Positions 17,387-61,265 of a stretch of 64,000 nucleotides of DNA are shown in pieces (within the stretch, counting starts at the first letter, position 1; each line of letters begins with the position of its first letter). The translations under genes and the position numbers were made by a program. This stretch comes from Trichothermofontia sichuanensis B231 (GTDB lineage Bacteria; Cyanobacteriota; Cyanobacteriia; B231). The notes beneath the pieces were generated by a model. It was not told where the DNA came from and made no database searches. It saw nothing but the letters and a program-made list of their open reading frames with translations. Location of the stretch: assembly GCF_026240635.1 (NCBI RefSeq), contig NZ_CP110848.1, forward strand, positions 2,172,501 through 2,236,500, given 5' to 3'.

Positions 17387-17612
17387 TATACAACCTTTAC
17401 CTAATTTACTCAGTACACCGTTAAGGTTTGGATCTGGATCCGACCGGCAGCCCGCATCCCCCAACCTCTTCTCCCAAGCGGGGAGAAGCAAACCCTCACC
17501 CTAAATCCCTCCCCCAGAGCAGGGGAGGGATTTAGGGTGAGAGCCGCACCCGCGGGCTGCCCCCATCTTACCCCTGTAAAACTGCACTTTATGATTGAGG
17601 TAAAGGCTATAT
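17387..17612. repeat. Family B repeat, full length (about 225 bp)
   Basis: The left end is TATACAACCTTTACCTAA and the right end is TTGAGGTAAAGGCTATA, which form an inverted terminal repeat. An internal inverted pair is CCTCACCCTAAATCCCTCCC against GGGAGGGATTTAGGGTGAG. Copies occur at 31684-31914 and, inverted, at 32146-32369. The rest of the gap 17004-17703 holds an A+T-rich stretch at 17280-17390 with a T9 run and no supportable gene. Confidence 0.65.
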
Positions 17613-19386: not shown

Positions 19387-19718
19387 CGATCGTTACCCAG
19401 GATACTACTACAAAATTACTATGACAGCATTACGTTCACAACAATCCAGAATGACGTTCACAGAATCATTATCAAAAGCTAAAGATTTCTAGCTGACTAG
19501 ACGGGGTGAGCTAGGCAAAACTGTGTTTGAGAATGATGCCTTTATCTTAAAGCCTAATGGCTGCTATTTTGCAAGTCTAAATGTTATCTAATTCCGACAT
19601 CCCGAGCTTAAACAGCACGATCGCCCCCGCCCAGAAGTCTCCTGCCATCAATGCTAATCGCTTCAATGCCGATCACGGATATCCCGCTATTCCCCTGATC
19701 AAGTCACCCCCACCTACC

Positions 19719-19830
19719 GACTCTTCTGAGATTGGGGTGTGAACCGTACAAGCAACTACAAACACAAGATTTGAAACACGGAGTTTATGGCGGCAGTGCT
19801 AGGCGCTCCCACCATAAACTCCGGAGAGTC
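19719..19830. mobile_element. 112-bp non-autonomous element, family A copy 1
   Basis: The ends are GACTCTTCTGAGATTGGGG and, reverse-complemented from the right, GACTCTCCGGAGTTTATGG. The flanking 8-mers are CACCTACC (19711-19718) and AACCTACC (19831-19838), 7 of 8 identical. Length is exactly 112 bp, as in the copies at 45773-45884 and 54588-54699. This is the most diverged copy: the inner hairpin GAGTTTATGG...CCATAAACTC has mismatches. The rest of the gap 19387-20188 shows no gene, and 19840-20188 presumably carries the gap1 promoter. Confidence 0.85.
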
Positions 19831-20173
19831 AACCTACCCAAGCTTGAAAGATGGTGAAGATTTGGTTAGCCGTGGAGGACTTTCAGTATGATTGCCATGA
19901 TTGCGGCTGCTAGAACCCCCTCCAGTTGGCTAAAATGCCTGAAAGACTGCGAGGTAAATCAAAGCGGTAACTGCTGTCAGTTTCTTTATGTTTATTTTAT
20001 GTTTTTCTAGGAGAAAAGCAATGCATTTCAATTTGGTATGTTAGCAGGATTACGTTGAGAAACGCAGCAAGAATAGCAGAGTGATGGGGACAATCCTGAA
20101 ATTTTGCTAAATAGTTATTGAAAACCACAAAGGGATATTACAGACTGTTACTGAAACCAGTGTTGTTGACTGA

Positions 20174-22550: not shown

Positions 22551-22735
22551 ATACAGCTTTTACCTAATTTACTCAGTACACCGTTAAGGTAGCTCTTCCG
22601 ATATTTGGGTGTAAACCGTATAATCATTGCAATTTAGGCTGAAACAGCCCCCTCACCTCCTGCTGCTCTCCCAGAGCGGGGGAGGGGGCTGTCCCCTGTT
22701 CCCTGTCCTTTCCCCCCTTGTAAAGTGAAAAACTG
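22551..22735. repeat. Composite repeat: family B left end, family A-like fragment, family C
   Basis: 22551-22590 is the family B left end (ATACAGCTTTTACCTAA...CCGTTAAGG). 22591-22620 resembles the family A left terminus (GCTCTTC, then TTTGGGTGTAAACCGTA). From 22620 the family C end follows (ATCATTGCAATTTAGGCTG, then the GGGGGAGGGGG palindrome). It looks like nested or recombined elements. The remaining gap 22320-22550 contains no supportable gene. Confidence 0.55.
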
Positions 22736-32145: not shown

Positions 32146-32369
32146 TATAGCCTTTACCTCAATCATAAAGTACAGTTTTACAGGAGTAGGATGGGGGCAG
32201 TCCACTGGTGTGGCCCTCACCCTAAATCCCTCTCCCGCTCTGGGAGAGGGACTTGAAAATCCGGCTCCCCTTCTCCCCACTTGGGAGAAGGGGGTGGGGG
32301 ATGAGGGCTGCCGGTCTGATCGAGATCCCAACCTTAACTGTGTACTGAGGAAATTAGGTAAAGGCTGTA
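32146..32369. repeat. Family B repeat, inverted orientation
   Basis: It begins TATAGCCTTTACCTCAATC and ends AATTAGGTAAAGGCTGTA. It is the reverse orientation of 31684-31914, so the two form a long imperfect inverted repeat spaced by about 230 bp. The whole gap 31612-32530 has no gene that I can support. Confidence 0.65.
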
Positions 32370-45726: not shown

Positions 45727-45772
45727 CCTTGCTAAATTGTGGGCACTAATGCAGTAAACATTAAAGTTTTGT

Positions 45773-45884
45773 GGCTCTCCTGAGTTTATGGTGGGGGCGC
45801 TACGCGCCCCCACCATAAACTCAACGTTTCCGATCGTTTATTTGTAGTTGCTGATACTGTTTACCCCAAAATCCCAGAAGAGCC
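45773..45884. mobile_element. 112-bp non-autonomous element, family A copy 2 (inverted)
   Basis: The ends are GGCTCTCCTGAGTTTATGG and, reverse-complemented, GGCTCTTCTGGGATTTTGG. Flanking 8-mers are AGTTTTGT (45765-45772) and AGTTTCGC (45885-45892), 6 of 8 identical. The left half is a near-perfect hairpin (GAGTTTATGGTGGGGGCGC against GCGCCCCCACCATAAACTC). It is almost identical to the reverse complement of 54588-54699. It lies 46 bp after the glycosyltransferase stop codon. Confidence 0.9.
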
Positions 45885-45907
45885 AGTTTCGCAGCGTTGG
45901 TTGTATC

Positions 45908-54255: not shown

Positions 54256-54890
54256 ATGGTTACCACACCACTCACACCGCCCAGGGAGTTAATACACCTG
54301 TCTGGGATTAGCTGGCAAACCTATGAAACCCTGTTACAAGAGTTGCGCGAGCAGGCTGCGCCTAACGCATAACCGAGGCACCTTAGAAATCATGACCCCA
54401 TCACCAGAACACGAAAGGGCTAAGAAAATAGCAGGGCGCTTTGTCGAGACAATAGCTGAGGAACTCGATATTCAGATAGAGCCATTGGGGTCAACTACAT
54501 TCAAGCGAGTGTCCTGAATTAAGTGGTGTAGAACCAGATGAGTGCTTCTATATTAAGAATATAGATGCGATTCACGGTAAAAAACGTGGCTCTTCTGGGA
54601 TTTTGGGGTAAACAGTATCAGCAACTACAAATAAACGATCCGAAACGTTGAGTTTATGGTGGGGGCGCGTAGCGCCCCCACCATAAACTCAGGAGAGCCA
54701 AAAACGTTTAGATTTAACAGAAGATCCGGCACCAGATTTAGTGGTTGAAATTGATGTAGCGAGTAGTTCCAAAATCGACTTCAGGTGTATTCCGAATATT
54801 CCGATTGCAGCGATCGCGGGATTTTTACAACGGGCAGGTACGGAAGATTATTTAACACTGGTAAAAGCGTTTCGGCGTTGGGTCGGCCAG
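54256..54890 (+). pseudogene. Uma2-family (DUF820) endonuclease pseudogene interrupted by a 112-bp element
   Basis: ATG 54256 opens MVTTPLTPPRELIHLSGISW, a typical Uma2 start. A frameshift near 54350 leads to RLTHNRGTLEIMTPSPEHE, another near 54510 to PELSGVEPDECFYIKN. Then a 112-bp family A element (54588-54699) follows. Afterwards KRLDLTEDPAPDLVVEID and ASSSKI continue, and a further frame change gives GTEDYLTLVKAFRRWV. PD-(D/E)xK core residues (PDLVVEID) are still recognisable. Removing the element with one 8-bp duplication joins GKK-RLDLTED in frame. The gene is inactive. Confidence 0.85.
54588..54699. mobile_element. 112-bp non-autonomous element, family A copy 3
   Basis: The ends are GGCTCTTCTGGGATTTTGG and, reverse-complemented, GGCTCTCCTGAGTTTATGG. 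The 8-bp flanks AAAAACGT (54580-54587 and 54700-54707) are identical, a perfect target duplication. The right half is a long hairpin (GAGTTTATGGTGGGGGCGC against GCGCCCCCACCATAAACTC). It is inserted in the Uma2 gene. The 8-bp duplication and the GGCTCTTC terminus resemble ISL3-family ends; that assignment is tentative. Confidence 0.92.
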
Positions 54891-55723: not shown

Positions 55724-55795
55724 GGGCGATTAGCTCAGCGGTAGAGCGCCTGCCTTACAAGCAGGATGCCACTGGTTCAAATCCAGTATCGCCCA
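55724..55795 (+). tRNA. tRNA-Val (anticodon TAC)
   Basis: The acceptor stem GGGCGAT pairs with ATCGCCC and the discriminator is A. D-arm GCTC-AGCGGTA-GAGC, anticodon stem CCTGC/GCAGG with loop CTTACAA (anticodon TAC), and T-arm ACTGG-TTCAAAT-CCAGT are all present. CCA is not encoded. Confidence 0.95.
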
Positions 55796-61007: not shown

Positions 61008-61265
61008 GTGAGGATAGAGGAGTGAGAAGTGAGGAAAACTGAGTGACTAGAGCCTTTACCTTAATCATAAAGTACAGTTTTACCAGGGTAGGAGGGGTGC
61101 ACCCCGTTGGTGCGACCCTCACCCTAAATCCCTCTCCCGTTCTGGGAGAGGGACTTGCCAATCCGGCTCTCCTTCTCCCCATCCCCCCGCAAACAGGGGG
61201 TTAGGGGGGCTGGGAGAGAGGCTGGGGGTGAGGGTGCTGTTTCAGCCTAAATTGCAATGACTATA
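61008..61265. repeat. Composite repeat: family E, family B left end and family C right end
   Basis: 61008-61050 is family E inverted (TAGGAGTGAGGATAGAGG...). 61047 onward carries the family B terminus (AGCCTTTACCTTAATCATAAAG). The right end is the family C terminus (CCTAAATTGCAATGACTATA), with a G+C-rich middle. This is a recombinant or nested copy downstream of the kinase gene, and no gene is present in 60992-61328. Confidence 0.6.

What the first reader, a model, noticed from the sequence alone, without database searches (positions are those of the whole stretch)
54588..54699. A defined 112-bp non-autonomous transposable element present three times
Copies at 19719-19830, 45773-45884 and 54588-54699 are each exactly 112 bp, with imperfect 19-bp terminal inverted repeats (GGCTCTTCTGGG type) and flanking 8-bp duplications: 8/8 identical at 54.6 kb, 7/8 at 19.7 kb and 6/8 at 45.8 kb. 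This gradient suggests insertions of different age. One half is a long G+C-rich hairpin. A fourth terminal fragment lies near 22591-22620. The 8-bp duplication and terminus resemble ISL3-family elements, but no transposase is in the window. I do not recall this element being described.
Basis: partly seen in the sequence, partly recalled or inferred. Interest (0 to 1): 0.72.

Follow-up and report, generated by a model that had tools for sequence, protein, structure and literature searches.

The report
ISL3-type miniature transposon in a cyanobacterium
The 112-bp repeat is a small parasitic DNA element that lacks its own enzyme, borrowed the ends of a known bacterial transposon family (ISL3), and recently copied itself about a hundred times through one cyanobacterial chromosome in which only a dead fragment of that enzyme's gene is left; the kind of element is known, this family is new.

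Summary
Copies at 19719, 45773 and 54588 are each 112 bp with a 15/19 inverted repeat and 7/8, 6/8 and 8/8 flanking duplications. They belong to one large family: I recovered 106 full copies in the 4.44-Mb chromosome; 101 are exactly 112 bp and 78 have an exact 8-bp duplication. Empty sites exist: an uninterrupted paralogue matches the joined flanks of one copy over 120 bp at 95% without gaps, and joined flanks restore Pfam domains in several genes. Both ends match ISL3-family insertion sequences; the right end is identical over 21 bp to both ends of an intact 1236-bp ISL3 element in another cyanobacterium. The only ISL3 transposase here is a frameshifted, truncated relic. It is an ISL3-derived MITE, now apparently orphaned. 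Two near-identical subfamilies (A, 35 copies; B, 51) mark recent bursts on top of older waves. The right half is a foldback hairpin made from the terminus and its inverted copy; its 3-nt loop occurs in both orientations in otherwise identical copies, a template-switch signature. ISL3-type MITEs are known from Microcystis. New member of a known kind.

The parts
54588..54699 (+). full 112-bp copy, subfamily A, one substitution from the consensus
54580..54587 (.). target duplication AAAAACGT, left
54700..54707 (.). target duplication AAAAACGT, right (8/8)
54588..54606 (+). left terminal inverted repeat GGCTCTTCTGGGATTTTGG, like the left end of the ISL3 relic in this genome
54650..54690 (+). 19-bp perfect stem with 3-nt loop (GTA here; TAC in about a third of copies); outer 12 bp of the stem are ISL3 terminus sequence
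54681..54699 (+). right terminal inverted repeat; reverse complement GGCTCTCCTGAGTTTATGG is part of a 21-bp stretch identical to the ends of an intact ISL3 element
45773..45884 (-). full 112-bp copy with the commonest subfamily-A sequence
45765..45772 (.). flanking 8 bp, 6/8 match to the other side
45885..45892 (.). flanking 8 bp, 6/8 match to the other side
45782..45822 (-). stem-loop of this copy
19719..19830 (+). old full-length copy, 85/112 identical to subfamily A
19711..19718 (.). flanking 8 bp, 7/8 match to 19831-19838
19831..19838 (.). flanking 8 bp, 7/8 match to 19711-19718
22591..22626 (+). left-end fragment of the older type, running into another intergenic repeat; no right end

Best explanation
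[quoted passage not shown] It has no coding capacity, and both ends are ISL3 transposase recognition ends, so an ISL3-family DDE transposase supplied in trans would cut it out or copy it and insert it with an 8-bp target duplication. Shown: copy number, fixed length, 8-bp duplications, empty sites, ISL3 identity of both ends, absence of an intact ISL3 transposase from the assembled chromosome, recent expansion. Inferred: that an ISL3 transposase (since lost, or on a replicon not in the assembly) mobilised it. The right end is a foldback: the ISL3 terminus followed by its own inverted copy around a G+C-rich core, most simply created by a replication template switch, which would also explain why the 3-nt loop is found inverted in about a third of copies and why the stem stays perfect (inferred). 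After insertion, copies act as recombination sites, giving A/B chimeras without target duplications (inferred).
For: 106 full copies, 101 of exactly 112 bp, 78 with an exact 8-bp repeat and almost none with other lengths. Empty sites: the joined flanks of the copy at 3654740 match an uninterrupted paralogue at 95% over 120 bp with no gap, and 13 of 78 joined flanks have a match running across the junction; joined flanks restore proteins whose Pfam matches run across the junction: Uma2 9.5e-18, DUF3137 1e-33, Pyr_redox_3 2.7e-20, DUF4351 4.3e-24, DDE_Tnp_1 1.1e-9. Right end identical over 21/21 bp to both ends of an intact 1236-bp ISL3 element with an 8/8 duplication in another genome (best of 20,000 shuffles 15/21); left end 29/41 to the left end of the ISL3 relic in the same genome. 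ISL3 elements in many cyanobacteria have GGCTCTYCYG-type ends and 8-bp duplications. The genome holds one ISL3 transposase match, a relic ending half-way through the DDE domain. Recency: 74 of 86 pure A or B copies carry no substitution outside the loop, 13 substitutions in all.
Against: No intact ISL3 transposase was found, so present mobility is unproven and the exact parent IS is not identified. The relic matches the left end only partly (29/41), and its right end is lost. 28 of 106 copies lack an exact duplication. No sister strain is held (the order contains only this genome), so there is no strain-level presence/absence comparison.
Confidence: 0.94

Rival explanations
1. A REP/REPIN-like extragenic palindrome moved by a RAYT (HUH tyrosine transposase), in which the hairpin is the moving unit.
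For: High copy number, mostly intergenic position, strong hairpin (z -8.6 as RNA).
Against: Fixed 112-bp unit with ISL3-type terminal inverted repeats and 8-bp target duplications in 78 copies; HUH/RAYT systems make no such duplications (established knowledge). The hairpin's outer part is the ISL3 terminus itself.
Confidence: 0.02
2. A non-autonomous element of another DDE transposase family that also makes 8-bp duplications, resembling ISL3 ends by convergence.
For: No intact ISL3 transposase in the assembled chromosome; other transposases are present (for example a DDE_Tnp_1 gene), and their ends were not compared with the element.
Against: 21/21 identity of the right end to both ends of an intact ISL3 element and close similarity to the ends of many others.
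Confidence: 0.03
3. A domesticated regulatory element, in which the hairpin serves as an RNA processing, stabilising or terminating structure and copies are kept for that function (this would be in addition to a MITE origin).
For: Very stable hairpin; only 8 of 76 TSD-bearing copies lie in a joined ORF of 120 aa or more against 258 of 495 random points in the same loci; neighbour arrangement includes 23 convergent, 48 tandem and 14 divergent pairs.
Against: Near-identity of copies is explained by recent transposition; intergenic bias is expected from selection against gene disruption; no strong preference for 3' ends (median distance 158 bp); no U-run follows the stem; no Rfam match.
Confidence: 0.1
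4. Near-identity reflects gene conversion among old copies rather than a recent burst.
For: A/B chimeras suggest that copies recombine.
Against: Target duplications, which conversion of the element would not repair, are also nearly unmutated: 72 of 86 pure copies exact.
Confidence: 0.06

Closest known systems
187-nt ISL3-type MITE of Microcystis aeruginosa PCC 7806 (PMC11448079)
   Same: Cyanobacterial MITE, termini starting GGCTCTTC, 8-nt direct repeats, stem-loop, 31-33 identical copies, proposed to be moved by ISL3 transposases; also inserts in genes.
   Different: 187 against 112 bp; there, ISL3 elements with matching ends are present in the same genome, here only a relic; more than 100 copies here. 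The sequence of the Microcystis element was not compared with this one. A foldback right end and loop inversion were not reported in the passages read.
ISL3-family insertion sequences of cyanobacteria (intact copies at L065, L061, L063, L137-L139)
   Same: Terminal sequence (right end 21/21 with L065) and 8-bp duplication.
   Different: About 1.24 kb with transposase; ends do not continue into a hairpin.
Approx. 113-bp ISL3-ended elements in two other cyanobacterial genomes (L242, L249; G039, G352)
   Same: Length, both ISL3-type ends, 8-bp duplication at L242 (TGAATTTT).
   Different: Ordinary interior, no foldback hairpin, few copies; no interior similarity seen by eye.
Nezha, cyanobacterial MITE (Zhou et al. 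2008, cited in PMC10969869)
   Same: Cyanobacterial MITE.
   Different: Original paper not held; family and ends could not be compared.

Membership tests
MITE | short (<500 bp), no coding capacity | tested here: met
   112 bp; stops in all six frames
MITE | terminal inverted repeats | tested here: met
   15/19
MITE | target site duplication and empty sites | tested here: met
   78 of 106 exact 8-bp; paralogous empty sites
MITE | high copy number of uniform units | tested here: met
   106 full copies, 101 of 112 bp
MITE | mobilised in trans by a related transposase | not testable with these tools
   no intact ISL3 transposase in the assembly
ISL3-derived element | ends match ISL3-family termini | tested here: met
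   right end 21/21 to L065, left end 29/41 to the relic
ISL3-derived element | 8-bp target duplication | tested here: met
   same length in intact ISL3 elements
ISL3-derived element | ISL3 transposase gene in the same genome | tested here: inconclusive
   one frameshifted, truncated relic only
REP/REPIN | no target duplication; palindrome alone as unit | tested here: not met
   8-bp duplications around a 112-bp unit

The most novel reading that the evidence does not exclude
The foldback right end is not incidental: a MITE whose transposase-binding terminus was turned into an invertible, self-repairing hairpin by template switching gains better transposition or avoids decay of its end, and this drove two successive bursts to about 100 copies.
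Probability: 0.1. Interest if true: 0.6.

Novelty: new member of a known kind. Interest (0 to 1): 0.33.

Why it matters
It is a clean, very recent expansion of an ISL3-type MITE in a cyanobacterium that is the only held genome of its order, with only a dead transposase relic left in the assembled chromosome. The identical copies with both loop orientations give a natural record of hairpin inversion, and the A/B chimeras lacking duplications mark recombination between copies. For annotators it explains over a hundred dispersed hairpins and several broken genes.

Tried and rejected
Age gradient from duplications: rejected. The idea that a MITE insertion killed the transposase: rejected on reading the relic; the coding match already stops at about FDRFHV and is frameshifted, and the subfamily-B copy (duplication TGACTTAT) landed at the broken edge. 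Reciprocal exchange of flanks between copies lacking duplications: no pair found. In-frame read-through (112+8 = 120 bp): all six frames contain stops. Presence elsewhere: 0 exact matches in genome contigs and viral contigs (own genome is left out of these), none in plasmids or phages, 1 of 386 cyanobacterial genomes (own). Genus, family and order hold no other genome. A separate 59-bp right-end palindrome (L130) has no duplication, so I do not call it an element.

Full report
Observation. The fragment near 22591 is a left end of an older type.

Scale. The window lies in a single 4.44-Mb contig (99.8% complete), a cyanobacterium as judged from its GCGATCGC-rich DNA and its relatives; it is the only held genome of its genus, family and order. 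I could not name the species: named collections leave the own genome out. The left-end 26-mer with up to 3 mismatches has 118 hits and its reversed control none; the right-end 23-mer has 179 and none. I fetched the listed copies and recovered 106 full ones. Of these, 101 are exactly 112 bp and 78 are flanked by an exact 8-bp direct repeat; exact repeats of 7 bp occur in 2 and of 5, 6, 9 or 10 bp in none. The count is a lower bound: the similarity search scored only 40 of 203 candidates, pattern lists stop at 100 places, and the excess of right ends indicates further old or broken copies.

Insertion is proven by empty sites. Joining the flanks of TSD-bearing copies with one 8-bp repeat removed gives sequences that in 13 of 78 cases match another place in the fetched sequence across the junction (some of these with small gaps); the cleanest, for the copy at 3654740, aligns 120 of 120 columns at 95% identity without gaps to an uninterrupted copy of the same transposase gene. 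At the protein level, joined flanks give reading frames whose Pfam matches run across the junction: Uma2, DUF3137, Pyr_redox_3, DUF4351, DDE_Tnp_1. The 54.6-kb copy itself lies in a Uma2 remnant (joined match 3.9e-5, below the Pfam cut-off, so only suggestive).

What it derives from. The only ISL3 transposase sequence found in the chromosome is a relic at about 3638790-3639563, with an ISL3-type left end, an N-terminal part, a frameshift and half of the DDE domain. A subfamily-B copy with duplication TGACTTAT sits at its broken edge, and a B-type right end directly abuts its left end. Relatives of this transposase occur in other cyanobacteria at 51-74% identity, and 73 loci were found in named genomes. 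Intact ones are about 1.24 kb with 8-bp duplications. The element's right end, GGCTCTCCTGAGTTTATGGTG, is identical over 21 bp to both ends of the ISL3 element at L065 (duplication GACTAATC); shuffled sequences reached at most 15. The left end matches the relic's left end at 29/41. Both ends are therefore ISL3 ends.

Subfamilies and age. Seven positions separate subfamilies A and B. Of 35 pure A copies 29, and of 51 pure B copies 45, have no substitution outside the loop; 13 substitutions in 86 copies over 109 bp. Duplications in these copies are likewise almost unmutated, which argues for recent bursts rather than conversion. Older waves exist: the 19.7-kb copy is 85/112 identical to A, and others (L212, L227, L131, L240) are similarly diverged. 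The five copies with one subfamily's left end and the other's right end (L031, L055, L079, L080, L086) all lack a duplication, against 14 of 86 pure copies (Fisher p = 2.5e-4). The chimera set was picked by inspection after seeing the data, so the p-value is descriptive. Recombination between copies followed by loss of one junction is the simplest reading.

The hairpin. Positions 63-103 form a 19-bp perfect stem with a 3-nt loop; the whole element folds far better than shuffles (z -8.6 RNA, -8.4 DNA). The outer 12 bp of the stem (GAGTTTATGGTG) are part of the ISL3 terminus and the other arm is its inverted copy, so the right half is a foldback of the end. The loop reads GTA in 65 copies and TAC, its reverse complement, in 32; among exact consensus copies with perfect duplications the split is A 20:6 and B 24:12. 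Inversion of a loop between perfect arms is a known signature of replication template switching (PMC8794818). At least one change within each subfamily, or ancestral polymorphism, is needed; I cannot count events. Some older copies have paired changes in both arms (L212, L215; L125 at the TATCGTG/CACGATA step), consistent with the same process, but the 19.7-kb copy has mismatched arms.

Effect on the host. Only 8 of 76 TSD-bearing copies lie inside a joined ORF of at least 120 aa, against 258 of 495 random points in the same loci. The control points come from loci chosen around insertions, so this is a rough comparison. All six frames of the element contain stops, so an insertion in a gene truncates the product. 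No strong preference for gene ends was seen.

Comparison with the known. A 187-nt MITE of Microcystis with GGCTCTTCG ends, 8-nt repeats and a stem-loop has been assigned to ISL3 transposases (PMC11448079). Two other cyanobacterial genomes carry ISL3-ended elements of about 113 bp without the foldback. The present family is therefore a new member of a known kind; its distinctive traits are the foldback right end, the invertible loop, the high recent copy number and the missing transposase. Its left-end pattern (26-28 nt) is absent from the other genomes and viral contigs searched, and the 112-bp element finds no similar plasmid or phage record.

Limits. Plasmids may be missing from the assembly. 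No mobility was observed directly. The library holds only open-licence papers, so an earlier description cannot be excluded.

Noticed in passing
L033 (G000:C1:3376500-3377600), element near 3377150-3377312: A 164-bp variant with the same ISL3 ends and an 8/8 duplication (TACCCATT), whose interior is replaced by another intergenic repeat (TTTCAGCCTAAATTGCAATGACTATA type).
   Followed up: partly
L130:1108-1166 (G000:C1:3949107-3949165): A 59-bp near-perfect palindrome made of two right ends facing each other, without a target duplication.
   Followed up: partly
L020:743-1677 (G000:C1:3638742-3639676): ISL3 relic whose left end directly abuts a subfamily-B right end with hairpin, as if the IS had inserted into a MITE copy (possible duplication ATAAACTC, right side lost).
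   Followed up: partly
window 22560-22700, 17554-17608, 32149-32213, 61051-61112 and many loci: Further high-copy intergenic repeats (for example TTTAGGCTGAAACAGCCCC and CTCTCCCAGAGCGGGAGAGGG types) that host several of the insertions.
   Followed up: no
L242 (G039 C97:4163-4275), L249 (G352 C81:13953-14065): ISL3-ended elements of about 113 bp in two genomes of another genus; at least one with an 8-bp duplication.
   Followed up: partly
window 55724-55795: A tRNA gene about 1 kb from the 54.6-kb copy (Rfam RF00005).
   Followed up: no
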